NCBI RefSeq assembly: GCF_000003605.2
Contig: NW_003153751.1
Coordinates: forward strand, 26,756-70,749
Reading direction: 5' to 3'
DNA from: Saccoglossus kowalevskii
Taxonomy: Eukaryota; Hemichordata; Enteropneusta; Harrimaniidae
DNA length: 43,994 nt
Positions 15,845 through 43,864 of this stretch are shown here, piece by piece; within the stretch, counting starts at the first letter, position 1; the number at the start of each line of letters is the position of its first letter. The translations under genes and the position numbers were made by a program. A model generated the notes under the pieces. It made no database searches. It saw only the letters and a program-made list of their open reading frames with translations, and was not told the origin of the DNA.

Positions 15845-16682
15845 TTGCGTAACTATTATCGGAACGTGCCTAAATGTGTTGACTGCGGTAAAATAAAGAA
15901 TGTCACAGTCACGGATGATGATATACCATTGTGTAAAAAATGTGGAAGTAGCCGACTGGAGTGTTTGGAGACAGGTCATGGAGAAAAACAACCATCCTTA
16001 GTTAAAATTATGAATGAATTTTCTTATATTTTTATTGCTGAATTGAAATTAGGACAAGAGGGCGTAGTTAAATCTGTAACATTCATGAGTGACAAATTTG
16101 AAGAAATGGCGAGAGAAATTGCGCTACTCAAGAAGGCGAACGCAGAGCTAAACCAAGATAATCACCGACTACGAAGTCAAGTTAATACTATAGAAAAGGA
16201 CCTCAATGAACTGAATCAGTACCATCGCAGGATTAATTTGGAGATTACTGGCATCCCAGAGACACGTGATGATGAAAACACAGAAAACATAGTACTCAAT
16301 GATCGATCCCGAAACTACTAAGCACGATATCGATGTTACACATCGTATTGGTAAACGTGAAGATTCACAGCGGAACGATCGACCAAGACGTATCATCGTA
16401 CGGTTCACGACCAGAAAGAAAAGAAATGTAATCTATGGCGGAAGACGTAAACTGAAAAATATTACCACGAGAAATATCGGATTTGATGTTAATAACCCAA
16501 TATTCGTAAACAAAAACCTGCACCATAGCACACGACAACTACTCGGGAAAGCGAATGAAGCCAGAAGGAGAGCTAAATATAAGTATTTGTGAACAAACAA
16601 CTGCCGTATATTTGTAAGAAAGGGCAGTGATTTGAGACCTATAATTATCAATGATGAGACTGACCTCTCTAAAATACGGTAA
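15845..16682 (+). pseudogene. LINE ORF1, zinc-ribbon plus coiled coil, broken
   Basis: This is the first open frame of a decayed non-LTR retrotransposon. Residues about 10-35 hold two CxxC pairs (CVDCG ... CKKCG), a zinc-ribbon-like knuckle. Residues about 75-130 form a coiled coil (KFEEMAREIALLKKANAELN ...). Then comes the INLEITGIPE box that opens the RRM-like part of L1-ORF1p-like (Transposase_22) proteins. A one-base frame shift occurs near 16299; the reading continues as THRIGKREDSQRND and NKNLHHSTRQLLGKANEARR. An in-frame TGA at 16590 (probably a former Trp codon) interrupts the tail, which ends INDETDLSKIR at 16682. ORF1 would bind the element RNA. There is no ATG at the expected start, so the copy is inactive. 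Confidence 0.75.
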
Positions 16683-16733
16683 TTTGTTATATGCAATATC
16701 TAATGGTCAAACACGTAAAATGATTTTCATAAC

Positions 16734-17424
16734 ATGGACCACACATTCTTTGATGACGATTTTCACGTCTCACACAATGTTGTAAATGACTCGTTTCCCC
16801 CCTCTGAATTTAATGAAAAGTTTAGTTCAGATTCCAATAGTTTGTCCAGTGTTTCTCACATAAACATCCGTTCACTTAACAGAAATATTGATAATTTTAA
16901 ACTGCTTTACGAAACTTGCCTTAATCTATAATTTAAAATAATTGGAATATCAGAAATTTGGCAGTTTAATAATCCACAAATGTTTCATATCCCATCATAT
17001 ACATTTGAACATAACATTAGAAATAATGGAAGGGGAGGGGGTGTGGGTGCCTATATACACAATTCTATTGATTATCGACTTCTAAACTATAATGTAAACC
17101 ACGCAGAGAGTTTGTGAATAGAAATTAAGTCTGGTAAAAAGGAAATAGTTGTTGTTGTTCGATACAGAAAGCCGGGTACAGATATTACAGAGTTTAGTTA
17201 GCGTAATGTGTAAAATTAAAATTGATAAATATTTCTGTGTATTGACAGGTGATCTCAACATTGATGTCTCAAAACATAACACCCATTCTGATAATTTCTT
17301 AGCAACCCTCGAAAGTTTTTATTTATATCAACTTATTAATGTTCCAACTCGTGTTACTAGTACCAGCAGTACTATTATTGACCACATATATTCTACATAT
17401 ATTCCAATATTGCAGAGAAGTTAA
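16734..17424 (+). pseudogene. LINE ORF2 apurinic-type endonuclease domain, broken
   Basis: Contains the hallmark order of APE-type endonucleases of Jockey/CR1/L2-like LINEs: SHINIRSLNRNIDNF, IIGISEIWQ (catalytic Glu), GGGVGAYIHNS, VVVVRYRKPG, TGDLNID (Asp/Asn) and STIIDHIYST (Asp-His). The frame is interrupted by a stop at 16929, a TGA at about 17115, a TAG at 17198 and a frame shift near 17200. The element would nick target DNA; this copy cannot. It follows ORF1 on the same strand. Confidence 0.8.
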
Positions 17425-27277: not shown

Positions 27278-28144
27278 AATATAGTCAGTTGCACCGTAAG
27301 CTTGCATCTGCGAAAATATGTAATTCACAATATTTATTCAAGCTATTCGTGGTTTCCATAGTTCTTGCACAAACAATTTTGCTTTAACAGTTACTGGCGA
27401 CAAGATCCCTAACACAACTAACAGTTTCGCTGCCGGTTACCGGTAGACAAAAGTTTAACATTACTGTAAAAACCTGCATGCTTCACCGGCAGTGGTTGAC
27501 CCGGAGACGTAAACATATAAATCATTGCGTAGTAGGTGCCATACAGTTAGATTGAATATGAATATTACTGCTTCACTGTAAATCAAGTAGCGGTGGACCT
27601 TCAAAATTGGATTGTCATTAGCTTTGCAACTACCGTCATATACTATACGTCACGTATTGGTGTTGGTGTTGTTTCGGAGTTCTTTTTTACTGGATGATGG
27701 GATGAATAATGTCCTGATTCGGTATCATCTTCAATTTCTATTTCAATTTATTGTAAGTGTTTTCTAATTAAGCGATCGTTCATTTGAATAAGTTCAGGCG
27801 TTAATTAGTAGGTAGTGGAGCATGATCACTCTTCCAATGTAACTTGGCAATAAATTTGTTACCTTCTCTGCGCAGATGAGTAGTAGAATATTGTTTATTC
27901 TGTTCATGATTGTTAGTAGTAATAATATCATAACACACTGGACTCAATGTCACAGAAACGGCAAAGTGACTAGTCTAGTTGCGTGTTTATATTTACTTGA
28001 TCAATGTCAGCAGGGTTTGTTCTCATTGACGACGACGTCATCGACGAGACTGGGGGAATGTCGTTCAGAAGTTTCACATACATTGTAGACATGTTTCCGC
28101 GAAATCGGATGCAATAAACGCGACCATATTGTTTGATGATAAAA
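27278..28144. other. Non-coding stretch upstream of the exon array
   Basis: No start exon or promoter for the downstream gene could be argued. The boundary at 28145 is abrupt: array homology begins there in the middle of a type A exon. Confidence 0.4.
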
Positions 28145-28172
28145 AGCAAAGTACCAGACACAATGGCAACTG
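28145..28172 (+). pseudogene. Type A exon, copy A0, 5' part missing
   Basis: Only the last 28 nt of the 114-nt type A exon remain (AGCAAAGTACCAGACACAATG...), followed by the GTAAGAAATATTC donor and the typical intron. Over 126 bp the copy is identical to the A2 unit (31629-31754) apart from one base. The acceptor and first three quarters of the exon are absent, so it cannot be spliced in as a normal A exon. Confidence 0.7.
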
Positions 28173-28270
28173 GTAAGAAATATTCAAATATGCCATTTGC
28201 ACGCCAAGCCCTAATACAGTGTATGAAATATGCTGTGCTGTTGTCAAAAGTAATCACAATTGTTGCCCAT

Positions 28271-29437
28271 TGTCACGAGGTCACGGGATCAAATATTACC
28301 CCAAAATATCAAAAAGTATACAATACTTTTACCACCTCGTGTGCGGTTCTTAACCAATATAAAATTACACAATTCGTGCAACACAGGTATAATTTAGACT
28401 GATGGGCTCCAGTAGAGTTCAATATAACTATATGCACATACATTTTGTATAAGCAGCAATAATGCACACCAGCCAATCTTACACATACAACACTACACAT
28501 GAATTACGTGAAACCATAGTTTATTTGACACACAAAACATATGCTTGCTACAGTTCTCTCCGTCGGTATCGTCCGCCCCTGCAGAGGTTCAGCACAACAC
28601 GCGGCCCTCACCACGCACCAACGCAACTATATTATTGGTAAGAGGAGAGGGTTACGAAATTTCGCACTGTAGACACTACAGCAAAGTCGGTAACGACCCT
28701 ACGAATAGGGGAGGAACGGCGTACCCTACTAGTCACGTAAATCAGTGCCATGCACTCCTGAAATGTTACATATTAAAATAAACTGGCCAGGAAAATAACA
28801 ATTTTAGAAATTAACAAGATAATATAATAACTCAAAGCCCAAGATTAACTAGTGTGTGTGTAGGAATGTGTGAACAGTGTCAGTCGGCGGCGTCGCCCGG
28901 TGAATTATAAGAAGCCAGCAACAGTAGTTAGCGACTTGAACTCTACCTTCTCATCCACAGCGCCAAGGCTTCCTTCCCGGTTAGACTTCAGACTGATGTT
29001 CAACGCCGGGTTCGATTATGGTAGTATGTGGTGGCCCTGTTCGCCGCTTCCAGGGTCGTACAAAGCGTGGATCGTTGGTCACGATCTCCAGCAGCAGCAA
29101 CAACCCAGCACCACGCTGTCTCAGTCTTTAAATACCATGCCATCATGTGGCTAATTGTGTCAATCACTAATTGGTCTTCGACACCTGTTCATCACACAGA
29201 TACTCGTCCAGCAGTGTACAGGTGCGACTTCGAGGTCACATAACAGGTACTTTCTGTACGTGTAGTGTCAAATGCGGCTACCTACTGGGCTATAAAACCT
29301 ATCTCTGGGCTGTTATCAATTTATACTATAACAATGAATTAATAAATACAAAATTACATCTTGCGTGTATAACGCATAATAACAAGTGTGTCTATTTAAT
29401 AATACAGTTTCTGGTATGATTCAAACACCTCATGATA
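28271..29437. mobile_element. 1167-bp insertion with 5-bp target duplication, likely solo LTR
   Basis: The A-unit intron reads GTTGCCCAT at 28262-28270 and resumes at CCCATATAGCG (29438), whereas the uninterrupted copy at 31745-31760 has a single CCCAT. CCCAT is therefore a 5-bp target-site duplication. The insertion starts TGTCACGAGG and ends CCTCATGATA, inverted at 8 of 10 positions, and contains TATAAAA at about 29292. TG-start, inverted ends and a 5-bp duplication fit a solo LTR (Gypsy-like), with a DNA transposon as the alternative. Open frames inside (28545-28781, 28870-29154) show no recognised domain. Confidence 0.75.
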
Positions 29438-29690
29438 CCCATATAGCGTTGACCTTAATTAAAGTTTAATTTTTGTCTTATTTAGGGTTAGACCATTTAA
29501 AAACTCTGGAATGGCTGAATTAAAAAATCATGGAAATAAAATCCTACAGGTATCAATAACACAACCAAATTTCCGGACTCCTATTTCTCAGGGAAACCAT
29601 TACACACAGACACAATAAAACATGCAGTGAATTATCAATAAAAAAATAGCACACATTTATTTGAAGAAAAAAAAAGGATTTTGTATTTTT
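29438..29690 (+). repeat. Array unit remainder (intron after A0)
   Basis: Homologous to the intron that follows the other A exons (CATTAATTAAAGTTTTATTT, ACTCTGGAATGGC..., CACAGACACAATAAAACATG). It continues the unit broken by the 28271-29437 insertion and leads directly into A1. Confidence 0.75.
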
Positions 29691-29727: not shown

Positions 29728-29841
29728 TTACACATAGCATGGCAATTAGAAAAAATGGGACAGGAGGGAAAGCAAAGACTACAACTGCAACAAAGAAGAC
29801 AGCTGCTACAAAGAGCAAAGTACCAGACACAATGGAAACTG
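29728..29841 (+). CDS. Type A exon, copy A1 (38 codons, phase 1-1)
   Basis: Acceptor GATAAATCCAG, donor GTAAGAAAT, 114 nt. Reads THSMAIRKNGTGGKAKTTTA, then TKKTAATKSKVPDTMET, leaving one base of the next codon. It is Lys/Thr-rich, hydrophilic and probably disordered. It has an in-frame ATG at 29739, so it could in principle also serve as a first coding exon. Same length and frame as A2, A3 and A4. It belongs to the array that precedes the ZU5 exon on the same strand. No database family is recognised. Confidence 0.55.
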
Positions 29842-30249
29842 GTAAGAAATTTTCAAATATGTCACTTGCACGCCAATCCGTAATACAGTGTAACAGTGTA
29901 TGGAATATATGCTGGGATGTTAGCAAAACTAATCAGAATTGTTGTCACATATAGTAGTGACATTAATTAAAGTTTTATTTTATCTTATTAAGGGCAGGCC
30001 ATTAGAAACTCTGGAATGGCAGAATTAAACAAAATCATGGAAATAAAGTCCTACAGGGATCAATAATAAAACCAAATTTCTGCACTCCTATTTCTTTGGA
30101 TAAAACATTACACACAGACACAATAAAACATGTAGTGAATTATCAATAAAAAAATAGCACAATTTTATTTGAAGAAAAAAAAATATTTTGTATAGTTTTT
30201 CTGCCATCTCTCATTTACAAAATATAAAAGTGTTTACAACTACTTAGTT

Positions 30250-30981
30250 AGTCCCTGTTTCAGGCGCAGCCTGAAAGACGGACCATCAATTCTTATTTCA
30301 ATTTTCTGTCTGTGACATCTCTAACATTTTCTCAGAAATGCTGCAGCAGGTTGATGAACAAGTCTCTGCCGAATATGCACGTAATTTTTTTTACAGATCT
30401 TAAAATCCTACGTGGGTCTTTTTCATGATTTTCATCCAAAATTACCACTCCCTGCTGCACTGACAGAGCAACTGAGCATGGTCAGAATAAATAATTACCT
30501 TAGATTGTAATGCTAGGGTTTTTAGGGATGTCATGACCTGGTCATGACCTTGATCTGAACCAATGACAGATGGGTCGTACCATTACCAATTTCAGTGGAA
30601 AAATGTAGAGGGGTGTCAGGGCTACATTTTGATGGGAATTATAGTGGTGATACTGAAACAAACCCAGGTCCTGGTAATATACAAAGATCTGAATTAACAA
30701 AGAAGTCAAGTTGTTATTAAAGGTACATCAATGTTTACTCAGATTTATGAATGCAGTTTCTTGAGCATGTATGAGACATAGTTTGGTTGCACTTGTGTAC
30801 TCTGAGATTTTGGACCGGATCAATGAAAGTTTTCAGTTATCTGATTAAGGGAAATCACTTTATGATGAGTTGTACCCACATAGAGTACATATTAATTCAA
30901 TTGTTTGCAATGTTCCATGTATCATTTTAACACGAGTATCTTATAATTAAATAAAGGGGACTGTGACATTCATGTCTTGTT
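30250..30981. mobile_element. About 0.73-kb insertion inside the array unit
   Basis: The other units read ACTTAGTTCAAGCTGTG without interruption. Here ACTTAGTT (to 30249) and GAAGCTGTG (from 30982) are separated by 732 bp. The left end carries an imperfect hairpin (GTCCCTGTTTCAGGC/GCCTGAAAGACGGAC). The segment includes the 2A-like peptide at 30646-30672, which points to a 5' LINE fragment, but no clean target duplication was found. Confidence 0.5.
30646..30672 (+). other. 2A-like motif GDTETNPGP
   Basis: An open stretch without an ATG reads GLHFDGNYSGDTETNPGP and stops 14 residues later. It matches the D-x-E-x-N-P-G-P consensus of 2A ribosome-skipping peptides, known at the N-terminus of some LINE ORFs in marine invertebrates. 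It is best explained as a relic of such an element. Confidence 0.5.
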
Positions 30982-31195
30982 GAAGCTGTGTATAATATCA
31001 TTCCATTGTTTCAGTCAATGCGACATAAACATTTCTTTTATTTTACTTCATTTGTGTTCTGGTGGTAGTTACATTTTCTCTTTTAAACATAGCTTTACTA
31101 GAATATGTTTTTAATTAGTGACATTGTATTGTGTTCAATTTGTTGGTATAATATTATACACGTTTACAATTGATTTGAATATCTTTCAATACTAG

Positions 31196-31264
31196 GTGCA
31201 CTACTCACAGCAAAGCGCAAAAGGAAATGTAATGAAGACCAGTCTCTGGAACAGGAAGTAGCTG
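31196..31264 (+). CDS. Type B exon, copy B1 (23 codons, phase 1-1)
   Basis: Acceptor CTTTCAATACTAG, donor GTATGTTTATT, 69 nt. Enters and leaves in phase 1; reads ALLTAKRKRKCNEDQSLEQE then VA. The KRKRK cluster resembles a monopartite nuclear localisation signal (inference). It lies between A1 and A2 in the array preceding the ZU5 exon. Intact copies B3 and B4 keep the same length and frame. Confidence 0.6.
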
Positions 31265-31542
31265 GTATGTTTATTCCACTTTTATTGTGTGTAATCTTGT
31301 CATTATATAGATATCAAGCCCAAATAGTTCATAGTAACATGTTAAAAGAATTCTGTGTACATTCATTTGTTTTATAATCCAAAATATTCACTGTGTCTAC
31401 AGATTAATTATTGCTATTTAGTAACCATAATGCATTTTTGGGCCACGTACAGTAGTTATAATTTTACAAAATTTGTGTAGATATATTTACGAGAAACAGT
31501 GCACTTTTCTCCAATAATTTTTTTTTATTTTGATAAATCCAG

Positions 31543-31656
31543 TTACCCGTAGCATGACAAGTGAAAAAAATGGGACAGGAGGGAAAGCAAAGACTACAAC
31601 TGTAACAAAAAAGACAGCTGTGACAAAGAGCAAAGTACCAGACACAATGGAAACTG
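31543..31656 (+). CDS. Type A exon, copy A2 (38 codons, phase 1-1)
   Basis: Acceptor GATAAATCCAG, donor GTAAGAAATATTC, 114 nt. Reads TRSMTSEKNGTGGKAKTTTV then TKKTAVTKSKVPDTMET. It is the last array exon before the ZU5 exon; its phase-1 end joins the phase-1 start of the exon at 32507 to give ...MET-E-TPATK. The protein segment would be a basic Thr/Lys-rich linker. Lys and Thr codons dominate, which explains why the antisense frame looks hydrophobic. Confidence 0.6.
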
Positions 31657-32506
31657 GTAAGAAATATTCAAATATGCCATTTGCACGCCAAGCCCTAATA
31701 CAGTGTATGAAATATGCTGTGCTGTTGTCAAAAGTAATCACAATTGTTGCCCATATAGCGGTGACATTAATTAAAGTTTTATTTTATCTTATTAAACTCT
31801 GGAATGGCAGAATTAAAAAAATCATGGAAATAAAATCCTACAGGTATCACTAACAGAACGAAATTTCTGCACTCATATCTCTCAGGGAAAACATTACACA
31901 CAGTATTTTAAAAAAATGATGTGAATAAAAAAAATATTTTTGGATAGTTTTTCGCCAACTTATTTGTGTTGAAATTTATTGAAATCAGACCACTGGCACA
32001 AAGTACTTCCCTCCAAGATTATCTTCACCAAATCTCATAGTTAATAACTCATTTATTTAAAAATTTAACCGGTATAACAAATCTTCTGTTAAAAGCTAAT
32101 AATATCACCCCTGGGTTTGTCGTTCTAAATAACCTGTGGACTCGTTATTATGATATTACATAACTGCACTCTACTTTTCAAATAATTGTTTGTATGAAAC
32201 AACAGCTCACAGTTAAGAACCAATCAGATCACTGGGGTTAACACTAGTTTCAATTACCGGTTATATACAATCTTATGACATCGAATGAGTCAAACAATGT
32301 CATCAAAACTGATATTGCCTATGACCTTTAAAATAATGGGTAAAACATCGGATGAAAACTGTTATAATTTTTGTAAGTTCAAATGCAAAGGTCCACGTTT
32401 TCAAATTTGAACAACCCAATATAATATGAAAAGAATAGTCTGGCTGTTCATTGACATTACTTGAATGTTTAATGTGTGTGTGTATTTGTGTGTTTTTTTT
32501 CTACAG
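31657..32506. other. Intron between array and ZU5 exon
   Basis: The first 270 bases are typical array-unit intron and the rest is unique. It ends in a TG-repeat and a polypyrimidine tract (GTTTTTTTTCTACAG). Confidence 0.6.
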
Positions 32507-33123
32507 AAACTCCTGCTACAAAATATCCTTATGTCATTGATAGATCCGATGTATCTGACTTGCCAGACTTCAAACCATCCTTCGACAGGAGATATGTCGC
32601 AGGAATGTTTGATATCAATGGAGGTAGCTTGATTTTACCAGATACAGGAGTGAAACTCTACATACCAAAAGGTGCCATAAAGAAAGGAATCAAGCAACCT
32701 GTTTTTATTTGCGTGACTGACGAGAAGCAATACCAGGTTCCTCTGAAAACAAATGAAGTTGCCCTAACACCAACTGTATTCTGTGGTCCAAATGTTCTGA
32801 AATTTCAGACATACATATATTTAACACTACCACACCAAGCAAAATCAATTGACAATGTCGGTGACTTTAACATTCTATTTACGCCCACTGATATTGATAA
32901 AAATACGGCCTGGGAAAAATACATCGATGTACAGAAAGTCATCTCTAGTGATACCATTACGCTGCTCATTAATCATTTCACTGGGTTTGGGGTTACGGGG
33001 AAAAAGGCGATTAAAAAACAGTCAACACCAAAAAAGAAGTACATAAAGGTCTATCCATATATTCAAAAATGTGTGGATGAAATGAAGTTAAGAGTCCATT
33101 GTATACATCCAGATATGGGTTGG
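32507..33123 (+). CDS. ZU5 domain exon and start of UPA
   Basis: 617 nt, acceptor TTTTCTACAG, donor GTAAGT, phase 1 in and 0 out. Begins ETPATKYPYVIDRSDVSDLP. The ZU5 signature starts about 45 residues in: GGSLILPDTGVKLYIPKGAI, close to the GGxLxxPxTGVxLxIPxGAI of UNC5. Follow P-T-V-F-C-G-P, the FNILFTPTD strand and INHFTGFGV at the domain end (HFT at 32974-32982). The last part, KVYPYIQKCVDEMKLRVHCI, is the first UPA strand pair (compare the LRVYC of UNC5). ZU5 domains bind partners or, in the FIIND subset, self-cleave at a His-Phe-Ser site. Here the third residue is Thr. The whole ZU5 in one exon shows no break. Confidence 0.9.
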
Positions 33124-33299
33124 GTAAGTAAATGTCTTGTATTGCTAATGTGACTAAAGAATCATTGTTAGAGGTGGGCGTCCCATACATGGAATATATT
33201 TGTTTTTGCCTGTAATGTGAAAGGAATGTGTTATAACAATTATGTACGTAGCATTGTTGTCGTCGTCATTGTTGTTTTTGTTGTAGTAGTTGATGTAAT

Positions 33300-33434
33300 T
33301 ATACTACACTGCACTGCACTAAACTAAACTACACTACACTGCACTACGTACACTGCACTGCACTGCACTGCACTGCACTGCACTACACTACACTACACTA
33401 CACTACACTACACTACACTACACTACACTACACC
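33300..33434. repeat. (CACTG)n/(CACTA)n pentanucleotide microsatellite
   Basis: Alternating blocks of CACTG and CACTA repeats within the intron after the ZU5 exon. Confidence 0.9.
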
Positions 33435-33654
33435 ACTTATGGTGTAATTCACTATTTTTTAACAATCAGGATTTGCTAATTTTTGCACTTCTTGATTTTC
33501 ATGTTGTTCTTGGGATCATCTGCTAGCATACAGTTGTGGTTCAGGCCTTGATATTAGTTTGCAGATACTAATTTCCATTTTTTTCTATTTGTGTAATGCT
33601 TTGAGGCAAATGATTTCTAACTAACCTAATAATCAGTTTCATTTTTAATAACAG

Positions 33655-33804
33655 CATCCTGAACACGAAGAAAACAAACTTGGAGGAAAACTCGCTGAAT
33701 GTTCAAAATCATTGTCATTTAACAGTGATGCTAATACTAAGCTGAAAATAATGAATAAAACTCATAATGAATGGGTCATTTTACAAGAAATGACTAATAG
33801 GAAG
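33655..33804 (+). CDS. UPA domain exon, part 1
   Basis: 150 nt, acceptor AATAACAG, donor GTAAAC, phase 0 both sides. Reads HPEHEENKLGGKLAECSKSL, then SFNSDANTKLKIMNKTHNEW and VILQEMTNRK. The LGGKL...KxLxF...LxI...W pattern matches the central part of UPA in UNC5-type proteins. It packs against ZU5 in known structures. It is separated from the next exon by a compact 132-nt intron. Confidence 0.85.
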
Positions 33805-33936
33805 GTAAACTATATGCTTTAAAAAAATACCATATGTCTTAAAATTTAAATATCTTTCAGACAAAACTTAAATCGTCAAGCAAATCGGGCAGCATTTAGA
33901 ACATTAAATTTTTCTTGTGTAAATACCATTTTTTAG

Positions 33937-34101
33937 GAAATGGAGATTGACTGTGAAACCATTTTCGACACAACAACAGATTATGTGACATATGTATGTG
34001 TACGGGATGAGCTCATAAAGAAATTTTCTTGTGATGTATCAGTGGAGCAGATAGGGGGAGCGTCTATTGATTTTTATATTTCAAACGAAGTGTTTATAGA
34101 G
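33937..34101 (+). CDS. UPA domain exon, part 2
   Basis: 165 nt, acceptor CCATTTTTTAG, donor GTGAGT, phase 0 both sides. Begins EMEIDCETIFDTTTDYVTYV and continues CVRDELIKKFSCDVSVEQIG to FYISNEVFIE. It consists of alternating hydrophobic beta-strand residues as expected for the rest of UPA. The downstream intron is enlarged by a LINE insertion. Confidence 0.75.
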
Positions 34102-34139
34102 GTGAGTCATATATAACTAGACAACAGTTTAGTATAGCT

Positions 34140-35300
34140 GCTCGTTTTTCAGTCTTAAAGTATCCTACATCTGAATCTCTTCCAATCACCATGGGTGTGC
34201 CACAAGGCTCAATACTAGGCCCACTGCTGTTTATAAGGTAAAAAAATTGTTTTGTTGCCCTCAGCGGCCGAACGAAAAATATGAAAATATCGGGTCGCGT
34301 TTTTTTTTAATAGGCCTAAATATTAAAAACGCACCATTTTGAGCAGTAAAAAAGTGTTTCCTCTAAATATTAACGATCCCGGACCGTTGTTTGATCCACA
34401 GGGTCCCCGGGGGGATAAGTGGCGACTTTGAACCTCGTGTTGATCTGTATTAATCTGACATGTTCCGAATACTATGAAGTCCATATACCTCGGCTATTTA
34501 CGATACCCTTAGTTTTCACGAGTTTTCTCGGACTCTGCTAATGTAGAAGCGTGGTGTAAAACTAATAAGATGATCATGAATAGTGAGAAAAGTCAAACAA
34601 TGTTAGTTACAACTTCCCAAAAATATCAAAAGTTATCTGTTGAGGAACTTAACATTTCAGTAAATGATTCAAAATTAGAGCATGTAAAGTCAGAAAAACT
34701 ACTCGGTGTCATGGTAGATCAAAATCTGTCATGGAAAGATCATATTAATAAAGTTCATAGAGTAGTGAGTATGCTTCTCGCCCGATTCAGGGGTATAACA
34801 CCGTATCTTCTCACAGCTATCCGTATCAAATTTTGTAATGTTTTTATCTTTCCCCATTTGGACTACTGTATCAAAGTCTGGGGATAAGCCCAGTTAAACA
34901 GACTATATAAACTACAGAAAAGATCGGCTAGAATGATTTTTGATCTTCCTTCGCGAACTCCTACTAAACCTCTATTTCAAAAAATTGAGATGGATGACTG
35001 TGATGGATAGGGTTGATTACCGGCGCTCTGTTATGGTCTATGAATCATTAAATAATTTTGCTCCAATTTATATGAGACAAATGTTTAAATTGACCAGAGA
35101 AGTCAGCACTAGGACTACCAGAAATTCAGACAGTTCCAAGTTATACTTGGCTCCAGGTAAAATTCTTAAAGTATATTCAGATAGCTTCTAATTCTCGGCT
35201 GCTGAATTTTGGAATAAAATACCTCTACCAATTCGTTATAGTGACTCAATTGGAGCTTTTAAAAGTACCTATTTTAAATGGTTCATGTCAAAAATGTAGT
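34140..35300 (+). pseudogene. LINE reverse-transcriptase 3' half in an intron
   Basis: Reads SESLPITMGVPQGSILGPLL at 34160-34238 (reverse transcriptase PQGS box). Then comes about 290 bp of unrelated sequence where the YADD region should be, then NVEAWCKTNKMIMNSEKSQT from about 34540 and LEHVKSEKLLGVMVDQNLSW. The C-terminal part continues in another frame after 34940 (VYESLNNFAPIYMRQMF) to a final WFMSKM-stop at 35300, with several stops and a frame shift. AATAAA (35385) and an (ATT)n tail follow. It belongs to a Jockey/CR1-like group, same orientation as the host gene. Confidence 0.85.
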
Positions 35301-35393
35301 TGTTATGTTATATTTCTGTACTTCTTTATTTAAAAATGTATTACTAATTTCTGTATATAGTACTTATTGTTTTTATCCTCTTTAAATAAAGTC

Positions 35394-35394
<1 letters not shown>

Positions 35395-35469
<75 letters not shown>
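35395..35469. repeat. (ATT)n tail of the LINE
   Basis: About 25 ATT units directly after AATAAAGTCT, the usual 3' tail of this LINE type. Confidence 0.9.
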
Positions 35470-37008
35470 TGACACTGTGTGATCATGTCGTGGTAATATT
35501 TGTTGTATATGTTTTTGAGTGGATTTATAACTTATTTGTTTATTCTTGAAAAAAAAACTATTCCAAAAGTTTTGATATTTTATATCTAGCTACTGACCTC
35601 TAAAACGAAGTTCAAACACGGGAACGTATAATTCGGTCTTCATTCGGTCAGAGTCATATTTCAGAAAACCTCTGGAGCAATTCTGTTTGTTCTTTGCATT
35701 TGCTTAGTACTTTATATGACGTGTGCACATGCAGTGGCTAAGTAAATTGAAAATGTGGTTTCTTAGAATGCTTTGTCAGTTTTTGTTCGCATTCGGTACA
35801 TACATTATACTTGTTAAGATACATTTCCATGAGTATTTGTTTTACAATCGGTGGCCATTCTGTTTTTCGGCCATACTACAATATACTATATATTTATGGA
35901 CCATTTTCATTCATAATTAGCACATGATAATAAGTTGGCCGACTGGCAGCCATCTTGTTTTTTTTTTAAAGTGGTATTTTGGACATCTGTTTGTGTCAAA
36001 TTTGGTACATACATTATACACTTTGAGATTCATGTTCGCAAAGATTTGTTTCACAATCGGATCAAAGATGGTCGCCTGGCAGCTATATCTATGCATAATG
36101 ATTATCAAATTCCCTACCTATATCTCAAAGACTACTCATTTCAATATGCTTTGGTACACAAGTGTCTGGGAACAATATTTAATGCTAAAGACCTAATTAT
36201 TTTTCGAGCATACTAATTGGCCAATTTGCATAATATGCATAATTATCACGTTTCATTGAAATTTGGTTCATAGATGCTCTTGGGTAATCCACAGACGTGA
36301 TTAATTTAAACTAAACTTTCTTTGACTTGTGCGTGTTTGTTGAGTGGATTAGTTTAATACATTTTCCCAAATTCTCATCGCTTAGGCTTTGTAGGACAGC
36401 TCCTCGTAATAAAAAATCGTCTATAATTATTCGTCCATAATTAGTTATTATTTTCATTATTGCTATTTGCATGGCAACATCACCTTAATGTAATATATTG
36501 ATTAAGGGCGTGTGTCAAGGGCGATACTTCATAACAATTCGTTCTTAACATTTGATTATTGAATACAGAATCGTTCATACATTACAGTTTCTATGGCAAC
36601 TGGATCCAGCTGTGTCTCAAACAAATTATTACTTCTGTCAAGAACAATCCATATCCTGAGTATTGGTCTATAACGTGTTCAGTTATTATTTTGACAGGCA
36701 CCCATACATATGAAAGACGAACAAACAAACAATCCAAGAGCAGCAAAAACAAAAACAGATGAGAGTGTGCATGTATTGTTAGCGGCTTGCACTCCTAAAC
36801 TCCTGAACAGACTAGCTTGTTGTCCTCTATCCATTCCTTATGTGTTATCCTAATAAGTAGCAGTACTAGTATACAAAGATATTCTGAGTTAAATATTGTA
36901 TACAAATGAATAATGCTACACATATTGTGTAACAGCACATGTGCTGAATGTAAACTGTAGATGTGATAATAACGTCATTTTCATAAGATTGTGTTTTTAA
37001 ATTTATAG
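35470..37008. other. Rest of the large intron, dispersed repeat fragments
   Basis: Segments at 35780-36170 (TTCGGTACATACATTATACT, TTTGGTACATACATTATACA, AAGATGGTCGCCTGGCAGC) belong to a dispersed family also seen at 39320-39480 and 40680-41290. No exon with the required phase 0 was found. Confidence 0.5.
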
Positions 37009-37282
37009 AAATCCAATAAAGAGGCGTTTGTGAAACCATGCAAAAAGTTTCCACATCAGGAGGAAACATGTTCAGTGCTTAATGCTGATGATGATACATT
37101 AAAGAAAGTAGAAAATGAATTAGGAGTAGTGCATAATATGCCACCTTCACAAGACACAGCTAATGTTATATTGGACATGGTGGAAATACTACCAGGTAGT
37201 TCACTACAGAAAACCCAACAGGTAGCAGAGATTATCAGAGAGGGGGAAAATGAAGAACTAGCAGAGAAAATACAGAACAAAG
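37009..37282 (+). CDS. Linker exon between UPA and DED
   Basis: 274 nt, acceptor AAATTTATAG, donor GTAAAC, phase 0 in and 1 out. Reads KSNKEAFVKPCKKFPHQEET, then the charged helical stretch DDTLKKVENELGVVHNMPPS and, after a short gap, VAEIIREGENEELAEKIQNK. It is acid-rich at the end and probably flexible or partly helical. No domain is recognised. It separates UPA from the death-fold module as in other ZU5-UPA proteins. Confidence 0.75.
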
Positions 37283-37608
37283 GTAAACATAGTAATAATG
37301 AGAATTAAATGTATATGTTATCACATTGAATATATAATCTATTTATAATGTTTATTTTACAGTTAAATGATATCAAAATATGATTGCTGTATGAGCATGT
37401 ACATGTTAAATAATGTGTTAGCTTTCAAGCGTTCACATGCACTATATAGCAAATATAGAATTGCTTGTTAATCAATGATATCACAGTGACAGATTCACAT
37501 ACACTATATAGCATATAGAATTAATTGTTAATTCATGATATCACAGTGACAGATTTACTATTGTTATGTTAACATCATTATATATTCGATGTACCAGGTA
37601 GTACGTTG

Positions 37609-37737
<129 letters not shown>

Positions 37738-37759
37738 GTATGTTGTAATCTTTCTGTAG

Positions 37760-37816
37760 TTGATGAGGATATGTTCAATAAATTGTTTGTTGAGTTGAGT
37801 CAGCATATAGGCAAGG
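37760..37816 (+). CDS. DED helix 1 micro-exon
   Basis: 57 nt, acceptor ATCTTTCTGTAG, donor GTGAGT, phase 1 in and out. Reads DEDMFNKLFVELSQHIGK, an amphipathic helix fitting helix 1 of a death-effector domain (F-x-x-L-L-x-x-x-S-x-x-L). Phase agreement with both neighbours supports it. Without it the DED would lack helix 1. Confidence 0.7.
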
Positions 37817-38039
37817 GTGAGTAACATATCCCTAATCATTCTACACACTGAGAAATTAGACTCTCCCAAGAATTAAATGCCTCATGTTCCAATCAAGGAT
37901 ACTGACATCTGCATGATGGGTAGCTATTGCCAGCCAGACATCAAAATAAATTATTCTGACCTTTTTTTTTTATTTTTACAAAAACTAGTCTGATTCATAT
38001 AATACAAAATACAATGTATTATTACATATGTACTGCTGT

Positions 38040-38530
38040 TTATTTTGATTCGTCCCTGAAATCAAAATCGGTATTTCCACACCCCATATGCAAATGAGGT
38101 CTGAGAGCGAACAAAGTACTCCCTTCAGGAGTACCGTTTTTCGAAACATAGCAGAAATAAACAATATTTTTCGCTTGGGGTACATGAATATACTCGCCGA
38201 GTGAAATGAAATTTGAACAACTGTAATGGTACTTTAAGGCAGTCACTTATTTTGACTAAAACTAATTTGCATATCACCCATGCAATAATGTCTTCGGTAT
38301 TTTCACGGTCGATATGCAAATGAACATGGTATTTCCATTGGCTACCGAACTATTTTTATTTTGTAAACACCGTTTCGTCTGCTATTTTTATCCGATTCAA
38401 ATCGTTTTTGGCATACTAGGTGTACATGACATGGAATACTACGATTGGGAGAACTTAATGACCACCTGGAAACTGAGTTTTATGAACCTTGAAGCTGCCT
38501 TGAAGGGCTCTCAGAAGAACCAACCGCAGT
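38040..38530. other. Intronic sequence, no supported exon
   Basis: A frame with HDMEYYDWENLMTTWKLSFM follows an AG at 38419 and could be phase 1, but it ends at a stop 36 codons later without completing the DED. The exon at 40093 continues the domain better. Confidence 0.35.
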
Positions 38531-38632
38531 AAAATCAGCGATTACTATGGCGCCACAACCATCAACATCGAGATACCAGGAGGTTTGTGCTGGCGGCGTT
38601 ACTCAGTTCCAAATAAAGATTATTAAAGCCAA

Positions 38633-38920
38633 ATGAGCAACATTTTAACCGGCAACCAAGACTCATTCAATCCACGACCACAAAGCAACATCACAAACGA
38701 AGTTGTAGCGTCCAGCTCAACGACGACCACTGTCGACGAAAGTCATCCCGTCAGTGGAGTACCGCAGCTGCACGGCATGTTTGCCAATGCACAGATCTGT
38801 GAAGGAACTTTTAACTTTAACATAAACTGTGTATCATAGTCGTCCAGTTCAAGTTCTGGTTCTGTCGTGGCCCCAACTAAACGTCCACGAGTTATTTATT
38901 CGGACAGTGATTCAGATTAG
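38633..38920 (+). pseudogene. C-terminal tail fragment resembling Crypton/DUF3504 proteins
   Basis: One frame reads VPQLHGMFANAQICEGTFNF, then NINCVS, an in-frame TAG (38837-38839), then a Ser run, APTKRPRVIYSDSDSD and a stop. A FxNCxIxGxFxxN segment followed by a Ser-rich stretch, a basic KRxRV patch and an acidic SDSDSD end is the tail I associate with Crypton-type tyrosine recombinase (DUF3504) proteins. This is recalled pattern, not a search. The recombinase domain itself is not present. Confidence 0.35.
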
Positions 38921-39119
38921 ACGTCTGATTACTTTATTTTCACACAGACGCGTTCTACACTGACACGTGTTGCTAGGGCGTAACACTATCTTGGAACATA
39001 TTAATGAGCAATGGGGTTCCCCACCTATATCTCATACCGGTTTGTTGCACGTTCTTTCTTTAATATGAAATAATCAAATATGGAACATATGTAATAATAA
39101 CAGAACCCTACACCCTCGA

Positions 39120-39198
39120 GATGCGGTGTATTCTGCTGTACTTTCACTCGCTTCGCTCGCTTCGCTCGTGAAAGTACGGCCGCAGGATACACCGCATC
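39120..39198. repeat. Long hairpin with TCGCTTCGCTCG loop
   Basis: GATGCGGTGTATTCTGC-TGTACTTTCAC (39120-39147) pairs with the complement of GTGAAAGTACGGCCGCAGGATACACCGCATC (39168-39198) with one mismatch and one 3-base bulge. The 20-base loop is a CGCTTCGCT repeat. It lies in the last intron of the gene. Confidence 0.65.
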
Positions 39199-40092
39199 AC
39201 TCGTGAAAATAACTTCCATACGCAACGAAAGCCATGGGTAGGGTATGGGCTTCTGTCATATTAATCTTCGTCTGAATGCAGTCCCAAAACATAGATCTTT
39301 ATTTGTCTGACGTCTGGTTTGTCCATGTTTATTTAATGGTCGGATTTCAATATGCACAGTTTTTGGGCGAACTTGGTACATACATTGAGCATAATGGGAT
39401 TTGATATATGTCACTGTTTTTCTGATTGGATTTGAATTAGTCGGCTGATTGACATGTTGTAAAAATAAATGAATTAGTTCCAGACACATCTCTATGAGAT
39501 GTTTTAACTAATTTTTATGGAAATTATTACATTTTGACGGGACTTAAGAATACAAGGCTAAAACATCCAAACTAATCAACTTCCTTTTTTTCTTGAGTAT
39601 CATTAAATTCACAGATGTGGTTTGCGTTTGAAATTATTTGGATCGGTGACATATTTTGGCAGCAATATTGGATTAAAAAAACAGCCTATAAAATACTCAA
39701 AAATCAATTCCCTATTTCTCTGGAATCAAATACATTGATCTGTTATATGACTTATGTGTGACATGTACCTTTAAAAACACACCACAATTGATCTTGTGCT
39801 ATGCAGTCATCTTGGATTTAAGTGAAACAGGAAGTGATATGCTATATTTTTCACAATTGTGATCATTTAAGATATAGTATGTGTGTTTTAATAACGCGAA
39901 AAGTTCTATTTTATACAAACTTAGTATCTAGTATATATGGATAACTTTCTGAACATGAAACAGTTTTGAAATTCAGTAATCATCACTATTTATTAATTTG
40001 TACTAAGTTGTATTGATGGTTCTTACAACTATCATTTAGATTTTCTAAAAATTCCACATATAATTCAGGATTATTTTATGTGCATATTACAG

Positions 40093-40388
40093 AACCATTA
40101 AGGTCATTAAAACAATACTGCAATCCGAATATACCAGAATCACGCATGGAGAAGCTCGAAACCGCATATGATGTCTTTAAAGATCTGTATCATCAGAGAA
40201 TCATCAGCTACACGAATACTAGCTATTTGGAAGAGATTTTAACAAAAATTGGAAAAGGTATCCTGATATCTAAAATCGATTTCCATCTATATGGTACGTT
40301 AAAAGGGCAATACAGCATCTTGAAAAGTGTTAAATGCTATGGGCGTGGGAAACGAATTCAATGTACTATCATAATATCTGATTTTTGA
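40093..40388 (+). CDS. DED helices 2-6 and C-terminus, last exon
   Basis: 296 nt, acceptor TGCATATTACAG, phase 1 in, TGA stop. Reads EPLRSLKQYCNPNIPESRME, KLETAYDVFKDLYHQRIISY, then TNTSYLEEILTKIGKGILIS. The pattern L-K-x-x-C, a short loop, LExxxDxFxxLxxxxxIS, LxEIL is that of FADD/caspase-8 DEDs, and EILTKIGKGILISKID lines up with the last helix of FADD. The RxDL motif there is replaced by KGIL. A weak GTATCC donor at 40257 would cut this helix, so read-through is preferred. The 30-residue tail after it is unremarkable. No canonical AATAAA was seen just downstream. A general death fold is more certain than DED over Death or CARD. Confidence 0.7.
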
Positions 40389-41330
40389 AACACTTTTCTA
40401 ATTGATTCAGAGGCAAACTTAATTAATATAACCCATATGCACTGCAAATAAGAATACATGTTGAGAAATGCTTGTATAGTTGGTTTGTTATCATGGAGTA
40501 GCGATCATTTTAGTTAACGTCATTGATTCTTTATTCTCACAAATATTTTTCTATTTTTGGCACAAATCGTTTAATCTCCCTGAAAACTACCAGCCCAATT
40601 GATTTAATGTTTGTTGTGCATAGAATGTTCACGAACATTTTAGTCCACGTGCGTCCGTGTGTCCATGCATCCGTGCGTGCGTACGTCTGGACGTGTATCT
40701 TTGACATAACTGGACCAATTACATTCAAACTGCACACATACATCATACGTAGTATTATGCCGAATGGCAGCTATCTTTGTACTGAAAATCATCAAAATCA
40801 AGCATTTCTTGGCTGTTTACAGATGTATTTTGTAAGTATATACATTGAACATTATGGGACCTTTGTTTTTCAGATAAGATTCAAAATGGACAAATAGCGG
40901 TCATTATGTTTAATGAATGTAGTTCTAGTGCCATATCTCTGACATGCTTTGACTGATAATGTTCAAATGTTATATATTCATTATACATCATGTCATAAGG
41001 GCCGAATGGTTGCCACTTTTGTGCTGAAAAATCACGCATTTCTGGCATTCCGGAACTTGGTACATAAATCAGACATTATTGGTTCTTGATGCGCGTCATT
41101 TTGTTTGTCGGATTAAAAATGACCGACTGGCAGCCATTTTGTTTTAATGAATGCGGTTCTAGTGCCATATATTTGACTTGCTTTGACTTATTTTATATTT
41201 TATATATTCATTATACATCATGTCATAGATATACAGATGTATTGATATGACAATCTGATTCAAAATGGCCAACCAGTGGCTATTTTGTTTTATTTAATGC
41301 AGAGCAATATTTCTGAATATGACTATATAA
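40389..41330. other. 3' flank and dispersed repeat
   Basis: About 40680-41290 contains three imperfect repeats of a CAAAATGG...GGCAGCCAT / CATTATACATCATGTCATA family. No polyadenylation hexamer of the AATAAA type was identified with confidence. Confidence 0.4.
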
Positions 41331-41517
41331 CTATATAACTTAGACATAAATATTTCTTTATTTTACTTCATCTGTGTTCTGGTGGTAGTTACATTTTCTC
41401 TTTTGAACATAGCTTTACTAGAATATTTTTTAATTAGTGACATTGTATTGTGTTCAATTTGTTGGTATAATGACGTTAAACCTCTTTACAATTGATTTGA
41501 ATATCTTTCAATACTAG

Positions 41518-41585
41518 GTGCACTACTCACAGCAAATCGCAAAAAAAATGTAATGAAGACCATTCTCTGGAACAGGAAGTAGCTG
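41518..41585 (+). pseudogene. Type B exon, copy B2, one-base deletion
   Basis: Acceptor and donor are intact, but the exon is 68 nt: the CGCAAAAGGAAATG of B1 is CGCAAAAAAAATG here. Inclusion would shift the frame, while skipping would be harmless because neighbours share phase 1. Confidence 0.75.
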
Positions 41586-41843
41586 GTATGTTTATTCCAC
41601 TTTTATTGTGTGTAATCTTGTCATTATATAGATATCAAGCCCAAATAGTTCATAGTAACATGTGTACATTCATTTGTTTAATTATCCAAAATATTCACTG
41701 TCTACAGATTAATTATTGCTATTTAGTAACCATAATGCATTTTGGTGCCATCTAGTTTAAATTTTTCAAAATTTGTGCAGATAGATTTACAAGAAACAGT
41801 GCACTTTTCTCTAAGCACGTTTTTCTTATTTTAATAAATCCAG

Positions 41844-41957
41844 TTACCCGTAGCATGACAAGTAAAAAAAATTGCACAGGAGGGAAAGCAAAGACTACAA
41901 CTGTAACAAAGAAGACAGCTGTGACAAAGAGCAAAGTACCAGACACAATGGAAACTG
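41844..41957 (+). CDS. Type A exon, copy A3
   Basis: 114 nt, phase 1-1, acceptor AATAAATCCAG, donor GTAAGAAATTTTC. Reads TRSMTSKKNCTGGKAKTTTV then TKKTAVTKSKVPDTMET. Differs from A2 mainly at E-to-K and G-to-C. Open throughout. Confidence 0.55.
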
Positions 41958-42062
41958 GTAAGAAATTTTCAAATATGTCATTTCCGCGCCAAGCCCTAAT
42001 ACAGTGTATGAAATATATGCTGGGATGTTAGCAAAAGTAATCAGAATTGTTGCCACATATAG

Positions 42063-42146
42063 TGGTGACATTAAAAAGTGAAAACGGTACAGGAAAAAAA
42101 GAAAAGACTACACTTGTAATAAATTGTGCAGACACAAAGGAAATTG
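42063..42146 (+). CDS. Diverged short A-type exon (84 nt, phase 1-1)
   Basis: After ACATATAG the frame reads VTLKSENGTGKKEKTTLVIN then CADTKEI and ends at GTGAAGG, aligned to the A-exon end (GAAATTG versus GAAACTG). It resembles a type A exon with its middle removed, yet keeps a multiple-of-three length, symmetric phase and no stop. It may be a decaying copy or a distinct cassette. Confidence 0.35.
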
Positions 42147-42435
42147 GTGAAGGAAAACATTTTTTTTACAGTTTTACTGCCATCATTCATTTACCAAATA
42201 TAAATTGTTTTCAACTACTTAGTTCAAGCTGTGTATAATATCATTCCATTGTTTCAGTCAATGTGACATAAACATTTCTTTATTTTACTTCATCTGTGTT
42301 ATGGTGGTAGTTACATTTATCTTGTGAACATAGCTTTACTAGAATATGTTCTAATTAATGACATTGTATTGTGTTCAATTTGGTATAATGACGTTAAACC
42401 TTTTTACAATTGATTTGAATATCTTTCAATACTAG

Positions 42436-42504
42436 ATGCACTACTCACAACAAAGCGCAAAAGGAAATGTAATGAAGACCATTCTCTGGAACAGGAAGTA
42501 GCTG
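42436..42504 (+). CDS. Type B exon, copy B3
   Basis: 69 nt, phase 1-1, acceptor AATACTAG, donor GTATATTTATT. Reads ALLTTKRKRKCNEDHSLEQE then VA. Open, with the KRKRK cluster retained. Confidence 0.55.
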
Positions 42505-42762
42505 GTATATTTATTCCACTTTTATTGTGTGTAATCTTGTCATTATATAGATATCAAGCCCAAATAGTTCATAGTAACATGTGTACATTCATTTGTTTAA
42601 TTATCCAAAATATTCACTGTCTACAGATTAATTATTGCTATTTAGTAACCATAATGCATTTTTGTGCCATGTAGTTTAAATTTTACAAAATTTGTGCAGA
42701 TAGATTTACAAGAAACAGTGCACTTTTCTCTAAGCACGTTTTTCTTATTTTAATAAATCCAG

Positions 42763-42876
42763 TTACCTGTATCATGACAAGTGAAAAAAATGGGACAAGA
42801 AGGAAAGCAAAGACTACAACTGTAACAAAGAAGACAGCTGCGACAAAGAGCAAAGCACCAGACACAATGGAAACTG
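42763..42876 (+). CDS. Type A exon, copy A4
   Basis: 114 nt, phase 1-1. Reads TCIMTSEKNGTRRKAKTTTV then TKKTAATKSKAPDTMET. Its intron (AATATGTCACTTGCACGCCA...) matches that after A1 almost exactly, so A1 and A4 are the closest pair on that side. Confidence 0.55.
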
Positions 42877-43500
42877 GTAAGAAATTTTCAAATATGTCAC
42901 TTGCACGCCAATCCGTAATACAGTGTAACAGTGTATGGAATATATGCTGGGATGTTAGCAAAACTAATCAGAATTGTTGTCACATATAGTAGTGACATTA
43001 ATTAAAGTTTTATTTTATCTTATTAAGGGCAGGCCATTAGAAACTCTGGAATGGCAGAATTAAACAAAATCATGGAAATAAAGTCCTACAGGGATCAATA
43101 ATAGAACCAAATTTCTGCACTCCTATTTCTTTGGATAAAACATTACACACAGACACAATAAAAAATGCAGTGAATTATCATTAAAAAATAGCACAAGTTT
43201 ATGTGAAGAAAAAAAAATATTTTGTATAGTTTTTCTGCCATCTTTCATTTTACCAAATATAAATTTGTTGTCAAATACTTGGTTCAAGCTGTGTATAATA
43301 TCATTCCATTGTTTCAGTCAATGTGACATAAACATTTATTTTATTTTACTTCATCTGTGTTATGGTGGTAGTTACATTTTCTCTTTTGAACATAGCTTTA
43401 CTAGAATATTTTGTAATTAGTGACATTGTATTGTGTTCAATTTGTTGGTATAATGACGTTAAGCCTGTTTACAATTGATTTGAATATCTTTCAATACTAG

Positions 43501-43569
43501 GTGTACTACTCACAGCAAAGCGCAAAAGAAAATGTAATGAAGACCAGTCTCTGAAACAGGAAGTAGCTG
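43501..43569 (+). CDS. Type B exon, copy B4
   Basis: 69 nt, phase 1-1, acceptor AATACTAG, donor GTATGTTTATT. Reads VLLTAKRKRKCNEDQSLKQE then VA. Open. Confidence 0.55.
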
Positions 43570-43811
43570 GTATGTTTATTCCACTTTTATTGTGTGTAAT
43601 CTTGTCATTATATATATATCAAGCCCAAATAGTTCATAGTAACATGTTAAAAGATTTCTGTGTGCATTCATTTGTTCAATTATTGCTATTTAATCACGAT
43701 AATACATTTGTTGTGCAATCTAGTTTAAAATTTCCAATATTTGAGCAGTTAGATTTTCAAGAAACAGTGCACTTTTCTCTAATCAAGTATGTTTTATTTC
43801 ACCAGATCCAG

Positions 43812-43864
43812 TTACCTGTAGCAAGGAAGGAAATAATTTTAAATGTCGGACTCAAAAGCAATAA
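43812..43864 (+). pseudogene. Type A exon remnant A5, ends in a stop
   Basis: After CCAGATCCAG the exon begins TTACCTGTAGC like A4 but then reads TCSKEGNNFKCRTQKQ and TAA in the array frame. It is either a decayed copy or an alternative terminal exon. A TTTTTTATTCTAG acceptor at about 43897 shows splicing signals continue beyond it. Confidence 0.45.

What the first reader, a model, noticed from the sequence alone, without database searches (positions are those of the whole stretch)
29728..43864. Array of two alternating short exons, all phase 1-1, amplified beside the ZU5 gene
Type A (114 nt) and type B (69 nt) exons recur: A1, B1, A2 upstream of ZU5, and B2, A3, B3, A4, B4, A5 downstream. 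Each has its own acceptor and donor. The four full A copies and three of four B copies keep exact length and an open frame while the introns drift. Because all are symmetric phase 1, any subset can be included, giving a tunable basic Lys/Thr-rich N-terminal segment with KRKRK motifs. This resembles a modular exon cassette system and is the strongest candidate for something undescribed.
Basis: partly seen in the sequence, partly recalled or inferred. Interest (0 to 1): 0.88.

Follow-up and report, generated by a model that had tools for sequence, protein, structure and literature searches.

The report
Tandem exon repeats around death-domain gene
A one-kilobase stretch carrying two short, probably protein-coding exons has been copied several times on both sides of a cell-death signalling gene in an animal genome, but the extra copies look like ordinary duplicates rather than a proven mix-and-match system.

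Summary
The array is real and, in the searches made, found only at this locus. Four full 114-nt A exons and four B exons (three of 69 nt, one frameshifted at 68 nt) lie in ~1-kb A-B units; a truncated A0 and a decayed A piece were missed. Intact copies are phase 1-1 and in frame with the gene between them, which encodes ZU5, probable UPA and a death effector domain. The claim that exons keep while introns drift is not borne out for substitutions: pooled divergence is about equal (A exons 7.7%, flanks 7.7-9.3%; B exons 5.6%, flanks 5.9-8.3%), exons beat both flanks in 4 of 12 pairs, and pN/pS is 1.2 (A) and 1.5 (B). Indels are rarer in exons (none in A), a hint of frame constraint. A has coding-like codon usage; B is weak. 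Three dispersed elements lie in or beside the array. Best reading: local tandem duplication of a two-exon segment, A2 the likely start exon, the rest spare copies changing nearly neutrally. Not excluded: a fast-changing N-terminal tail on a CARD8-like protein.

The parts
28141..28270 (+). A0: truncated A copy (3' ~32 nt of the exon, donor after 28172, start of its intron)
   Evidence: 128/130 identical to A2 region; blast match
28271..29437 (.). dispersed element inserted in the A0 intron, CCCAT on both sides
   Evidence: 60 matches elsewhere (40 of 131 candidates scored), five near full length at 83-86%; CCCAT at 28266-28270 and 29438-29442
29438..29690 (+). remainder of the A0 intron, joined directly to the A1 acceptor region (its B copy is missing)
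   Evidence: blast matches to the A2 and A4 downstream introns
29728..29841 (+). exon A1, 114 nt, phase 1-1
30248..30981 (.). high-copy dispersed element in the A1-B1 intron
   Evidence: 48 matches elsewhere at 76-96%, 40 of 382 candidates scored
31196..31264 (+). exon B1, 69 nt, phase 1-1
31543..31656 (+). exon A2, 114 nt, phase 1-1; likely N-terminal coding exon of the ZU5 gene (ATG at codon 5)
32507..33123 (+). ZU5 exon (in phase 1, out phase 0)
   Evidence: PF00791 E=5e-20; phases
33655..33804 (+). exon e2, UPA-like region
   Evidence: UNC5B alignment over residues 31-302 of the body protein
33937..34101 (+). exon e3, UPA-like region
   Evidence: paralogous exon on C2689
37009..37282 (+). 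exon e4, linker
37760..37816 (+). exon e5, first part of the death effector domain
40093..40293 (+). exon e6, rest of the death effector domain; donors possible after 40257 and after 40293, both phase 1; reading through, a stop lies at 40386-40388
   Evidence: DED 55.6 bits with the short form, 59.8 with the long form
40648..41322 (.). high-copy dispersed element between e6 and B2; array homology resumes at 41343
   Evidence: 85 matches elsewhere, 40 of 2389 candidates scored
41518..41585 (+). B2, 68 nt, frameshifted
41844..41957 (+). exon A3, 114 nt, phase 1-1
42081..42123 (+). decayed extra A remnant in the A3-B3 intron
   Evidence: 77% match to A over 43 nt
42436..42504 (+). exon B3, 69 nt, phase 1-1
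42763..42876 (+). exon A4, 114 nt, phase 1-1
43501..43569 (+). exon B4, 69 nt, phase 1-1

Best explanation
A ~1-kb segment holding two symmetric phase-1 exons (A and B) at a ZU5-UPA-death effector domain gene was multiplied by local tandem duplication and unequal exchange, and patched by exchange between copies. Shown: the units, their phases, no A/B exon elsewhere in the searched genome, their mosaic identity, dispersed elements in and beside the array, and decay of some copies. Inferred: A2 (34 residues from its ATG, Lys/Thr-rich, probably disordered) is the ordinary first coding exon spliced to ZU5, with B1 and A1 as optional in-frame additions. Copies B2 to A5 lie 3' of the death effector exon and are mostly surplus; if transcribed they could extend the C-terminus or belong to a gene beyond the window. 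The copies change close to neutrally, so no tuned cassette code is needed.
For: Locus-specific: 4 of 4 DNA hits to the B unit and 8 of 8 protein hits at E<=10 are on contig C4344; the 16 off-contig hits of 23 touch only an intron stretch at 29997-30208. Tandem spacing and unit identity. Near-neutral change: pN/pS 1.21 (A, six pairs) and 1.48 (B1, B3, B4), no significant bias among codon positions; pooled exon and flank divergence about equal. Random substitution leaves all four A frames open with P=0.65 and three B frames with P=0.79. Decay: B2 frameshift, A0, A5 and the 42081 remnant. Elements inserted. Coding origin of A: its phase-1 frame is the best of six in all four copies and its mean score is reached by 0.5% of 3,000 stop-free non-coding windows. 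ZU5 exons of three close paralogues also start in phase 1 (by eye).
Against: No transcript seen. No indel in A in six pairs against 11 (downstream) and 6 (upstream, three pairs) in its flanks, and 7.3 per kb in B against 15-17 (related copies, so few independent events): this fits a frame constraint. Exons are above both flanks in 4 of 12 pairs, and in three of the five comparisons exons are at or above the neighbouring introns. Only 17 variable columns in A and 6 in B, so weak selection of either sign cannot be excluded.
Confidence: 0.57

Rival explanations
1. Functional cassette array: variable numbers of A and B exons are spliced in to change the length and charge of a basic tail.
For: All intact copies are phase 1-1 and in frame across the whole locus; A has coding-like codon usage; no indels in A and fewer in B than in flanks.
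Against: pN/pS 1.2-1.5; pooled exon divergence about equal to introns, and exon identity below the better flank in 8 of 12 pairs; B2 is broken; copies 3' of e6 cannot feed the N-terminus by ordinary splicing; B codon score is weak (6.7% of background reaches it).
Confidence: 0.18
2. Collapsed tandem genes: the ancestral gene was A - ZU5...DED - B, and the A-B units are copies that lost the body between A and B.
For: A and B alternate and the body sits between A2 and B2, where A-unit homology ends at about 31961 and B-unit homology starts at 41343, points about 80 bp apart in the A4-B4 unit. Adding B to e6 raises the DED score from 55.6 to 58.4 bits.
Against: The natural continuation of e6 scores higher (59.8 bits), so B is not needed to finish the domain. 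A dispersed element lies directly left of the B2 homology and may explain that border. The ~80 bp has no match in the body introns at E<=0.01.
Confidence: 0.12
3. The downstream copies B2-A5 are used by this gene as a C-terminal tail, or by a second gene beyond the window.
For: e6 has phase-1 donors, and two DED paralogues (L055, L059) have phase-1 GTGAG sites after helix 6; e6-A3-B3-A4-B4 is open and A5 would end it with a stop.
Against: The closest DED paralogue (L054) and several others of the 13 looked at end with a stop in the same exon soon after helix 6, and e6 itself has an in-frame stop at 40386-40388. The parts of the contig fetched beyond the window read N, so the neighbour cannot be seen.
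Confidence: 0.08
4. A and B are not exons; they are parts of an intergenic tandem repeat that happen to be open.
For: Near-neutral change, and open frames cheap by chance; in B another frame scores higher than the coding one.
Against: A's coding frame scores best of six in all four copies; matching phases and splice borders beside a ZU5 exon that needs an upstream phase-1 exon.
Confidence: 0.05

Closest known systems
Tandem exon duplication (PMC9013439, abstract and outline seen; Dscam arrays PMC3236188, start of abstract seen in a search listing)
   Same: Head-to-tail exon copies inside or beside a gene, with own splice sites and compatible phase
   Different: Two exon types alternate as one unit, both symmetric so exclusion is not needed, no clear sign of selection keeping them, and most copies lie 3' of the gene body
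CARD8 / NLRP1 (disordered N-terminus, FIIND = ZU5-UPA, CARD; PMC3210808 and PMC10249858, passages seen)
   Same: N-terminal tail (probably flexible, inferred), then ZU5-UPA-like module, then a death-fold domain
   Different: Death effector domain instead of CARD; HFT instead of SF/S or HF/S at the cleavage site; no autoproteolysis or sensing shown; tail would come from duplicated exons
UNC5 / PIDD ZU5-UPA-death domain proteins (domain order recalled and from PMC3210808 passages)
   Same: ZU5 and UPA-like region aligned to UNC5B over residues 31-302
   Different: Ends in a death effector domain related to caspase-8 and FADD; no transmembrane or LRR part identified in the window (not searched for separately)

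Membership tests
Tandem exon duplication | adjacent homologous copies of an exon with splice borders | tested here: met
Tandem exon duplication | copies used in spliced transcripts | not testable with these tools
   no transcript data held
Functional cassette / mutually exclusive exon system | symmetric or matched phase of the copies | tested here: met
   all full copies but B2 are phase 1-1
Functional cassette / mutually exclusive exon system | amino-acid constraint on the copies (pN/pS below 1) | tested here: not met
   1.21 for A, 1.48 for B; few changes
Functional cassette / mutually exclusive exon system | exons better kept than introns | tested here: inconclusive
   substitutions about equal, indels fewer in exons; closest pairs favour introns, several distant pairs favour exons
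Dispersed transposable element | A/B exons found at many places in the genome | tested here: not met
CARD8/NLRP1-type autoproteolytic sensor | ZU5-UPA module followed by a death-fold domain | tested here: inconclusive
   ZU5 and DED over cut-off, UPA below Pfam cut-off (12.5 of 27 bits); UNC5B alignment spans the UPA region
CARD8/NLRP1-type autoproteolytic sensor | SF/S or HF/S cleavage motif at the end of ZU5 | tested here: inconclusive
   HF invariant in 7 of 7 aligned ZU5 exons of this genome; next residue Thr in 6 including this one, Ser in 1; ZO-1, not known to self-cleave (recalled), also has DHF there
CARD8/NLRP1-type autoproteolytic sensor | self-cleavage and activation on loss of the N-terminus | not testable with these tools
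   needs a bench assay

The most novel reading that the evidence does not exclude
The A/B exons form a rapidly diverging, copy-variable disordered tail on a ZU5-UPA-death effector protein, working like the CARD8/NLRP1 N-terminal tripwire: cleavage or degradation of the tail would free the UPA-death effector part. Exchange between array copies would renew the tail while flanking introns are homogenised and the frame is kept. In support: in A1/A4, A3/A4 and B2/B3 exons diverge more than one adjacent intron (post-hoc Fisher p 2e-6, 0.013, 0.07), all five A4-private changes are non-synonymous (my reading), and indels are rarer in exons. Against: pooled over all pairs exons do not diverge more than introns, and all of this also fits neutrality with exchange of introns.
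Probability: 0.05. Interest if true: 0.75.

Novelty: new member of a known kind. Interest (0 to 1): 0.3.

Why it matters
If ordinary, it is a clear worked case of how alternating symmetric exons can arise and look like a designed cassette system while changing almost neutrally. If the tail is used and under diversifying selection, it would suggest a counterpart of the CARD8/NLRP1 tripwire built by exon amplification.

Tried and rejected
B as the last helix of the death effector domain: B raised the score (58.4 against 55.6 bits) but e6's own read-through does better (59.8), so rejected. The body as an insertion in an A-B intron: borders fit, but a dispersed element abuts the B2 border, so left as a rival only. 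Antisense reading of A: one minus frame is stop-free with pN/pS 0.42, but the minus-frame codon scores of A are negative and the three minus-strand ORFs tested have no Pfam match at 0.1. A/B exons as a dispersed element: rejected. Intron 31950-32510: only itself found in the genome; nothing learned.
Full report
What is there. The window lies in contig C4344 (118,141 bases) of an unnamed 572-Mb genome, an animal's by its gene content (inference); the stretches fetched outside the window read N. Between 28,141 and 43,826 there is a tandem array whose unit is exon A (114 nt), an intron, exon B (69 nt) and a second intron of about 260-280 nt; neighbouring units repeat at 919 and about 1,050-1,065 nt downstream of the gene. 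Full A copies: A1 29728-29841, A2 31543-31656, A3 41844-41957, A4 42763-42876. B copies: B1 31196-31264, B2 41518-41585, B3 42436-42504, B4 43501-43569. B2 is 68 nt and goes out of frame to a stop.

Three dispersed elements lie in or beside the array. 28271-29437 sits in the A0 intron between two CCCAT copies and has 60 matches elsewhere, five near full length at 83-86% (40 of 131 candidates scored). 30248-30981 sits in the A1-B1 intron and has 48 matches elsewhere at 76-96% identity (40 of 382 scored). 40648-41322 lies just left of where B2 homology starts and has 85 matches elsewhere (40 of 2389 scored). The A intron also holds a dispersed stretch at 29997-30208, which accounts for all 16 off-contig hits of the 23. 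Exons A and B themselves were found nowhere else: 4 of 4 DNA hits and 8 of 8 protein hits at E<=10 are on this contig. Withheld stretches and the search's scoring limits mean that distant copies could be missed.

The gene between A2 and B2. Exons ZU5 32507-33123, e2 33655-33804, e3 33937-34101, e4 37009-37282, e5 37760-37816 and e6 40093-40257 or -40293 join in frame. The product has ZU5 (PF00791, E=5e-20), a sub-threshold UPA match (E=0.12), and a death effector domain (PF01335, E=1.6e-13 in the whole protein; 59.8 bits with the longer e6). UNC5B aligns over residues 31-302, across ZU5 and UPA, and caspase-8 and FADD align to the death effector part. The ZU5 exon starts in phase 1 and its first Met lies inside the domain, so an upstream coding exon with a phase-1 donor is needed. 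In three close paralogues (52, 50 and 45% identical over the ZU5 exon) the exon also starts in phase 1, read by eye. A2, 850 nt upstream, has an ATG at its fifth codon with A at -3 and a phase-1 donor. That A2 starts the protein is inference.

Is the array under selection as coding cassettes? pN/pS, pooled over pairs, is 1.21 for A (six pairs of four copies) and 1.48 for B (three pairs; B2 left out because it is frameshifted). Variable columns fall 6/7/4 (A) and 2/2/2 (B) over codon positions 1, 2, 3. With the observed number of random substitutions all four A frames stay open in 65% of simulations and the three B frames in 79%, so open frames alone say little.

Exons against introns, all 12 pairs (105-150 nt of flank; the upstream flank of A1 is not homologous, so three A pairs lack it). 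A exons differ at 53/684 (7.7%), downstream flanks 55/591 (9.3%), upstream flanks 34/440 (7.7%; exons of those same three pairs 20/342, 5.8%). B exons, B2 included, 23/411 (5.6%), downstream 65/780 (8.3%), upstream 52/884 (5.9%). The exon is above both flanks in 4 of 12 pairs and below the better flank in 8 of 12. Indel events: 0 in A exons against 11 and 6 in the flanks; 3 in B exons (all pairs with B2) against 12 and 15. So substitutions show no clear exon constraint, while indels hint at a kept frame; pairs share history, so independent events are few. The pattern is a mosaic: A1/A4 exon 101/114 against downstream intron 239/240; A3/A4 exon 105/114 against upstream intron 177/180; B2-A3 against B3-A4: B exon 94.1%, B-A intron 98.4%, A exon 92.1%; but B1-A2 against B2-A3: A exon 96.5%, adjacent introns 93.0 and 91.4%. 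This is what exchange of parts of units would give. Post-hoc Fisher tests of exon excess give p = 2e-6, 0.013, 0.07 and, for A4-private changes, 0.025; these were chosen after seeing the data and confound selection with exchange of introns.

Are they exons at all? Codon scores trained on 14 ORFs (3,699 codons) from other ZU5 loci of this genome give A its best value in the phase-1 frame in all four copies; 0.5% of 3,000 stop-free non-coding windows reach A's mean, against 6.7% for B. In all four B copies another frame scores higher than the coding frame. So A is probably of coding origin; B is open to doubt.

Where could the copies be used? Only A1, B1 and A2 precede ZU5. B2-A5 follow e6 and could only extend the C-terminus or serve a gene beyond the window. 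e6 offers two phase-1 donors and, if unspliced, a stop at 40386-40388. Among the 13 DED loci examined besides this one, the closest (L054) and several others end in a stop soon after helix 6, while L055 and L059 show phase-1 GTGAG sites there. This is undecided.

Comparison. The arrangement is a tandem exon duplication in the general sense of PMC9013439 (abstract and outline seen). Domain order resembles CARD8 and NLRP1: N-terminal tail, ZU5-UPA (FIIND), death fold (PMC3210808 and PMC10249858, passages seen). CARD8's disordered N-terminus is described as a rapidly evolving tripwire (PMC10249858). Here the cleavage position reads NHFT; HF is invariant in 7 of 7 aligned ZU5 exons, followed by Thr in 6 and Ser in 1. 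That is a lead only, because ZO-1 also shows DHF there. A search for papers holding both 'ZU5' and 'death effector domain' gave 7; I read passages of two of them and saw no ZU5-DED gene with duplicated exons there, which does not show absence from print.

Verdict. I rate it an ordinary but instructive tandem duplication, with a small chance of a diversifying tail.

Noticed in passing
window 32971-32982 (ZU5 exon); paralogue L039: The end of ZU5 carries HF followed by Thr (Ser in the C2689 paralogue), the position of HF/S or SF/S self-cleavage in PIDD, CARD8 and NLRP1 (PMC3210808 passages).
   Followed up: partly
whole genome: 32 ZU5 matches and 28 matches to this DED at E<=10, several on one contig, C3952: both families look expanded here.
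   Followed up: no
window 34150-35470: LINE-like remnant (reverse-transcriptase-like 3' end and TTA-repeat tail) in the e3-e4 intron; the label is recalled, the ORF tested had no Pfam match at 0.1.
   Followed up: partly
window 15845-17424: Another LINE-like piece (label recalled) with a weak endonuclease match (PF03372, E=0.008, below its cut-off).
   Followed up: partly
window 31490-31783, 41755-42027, 42686-42967, minus strand: Hydrophobic antisense ORFs of 91-98 aa across three A copies, no Pfam match at 0.1; one antisense frame of A has pN/pS 0.42, perhaps a by-product of Lys/Thr codons.
   Followed up: partly
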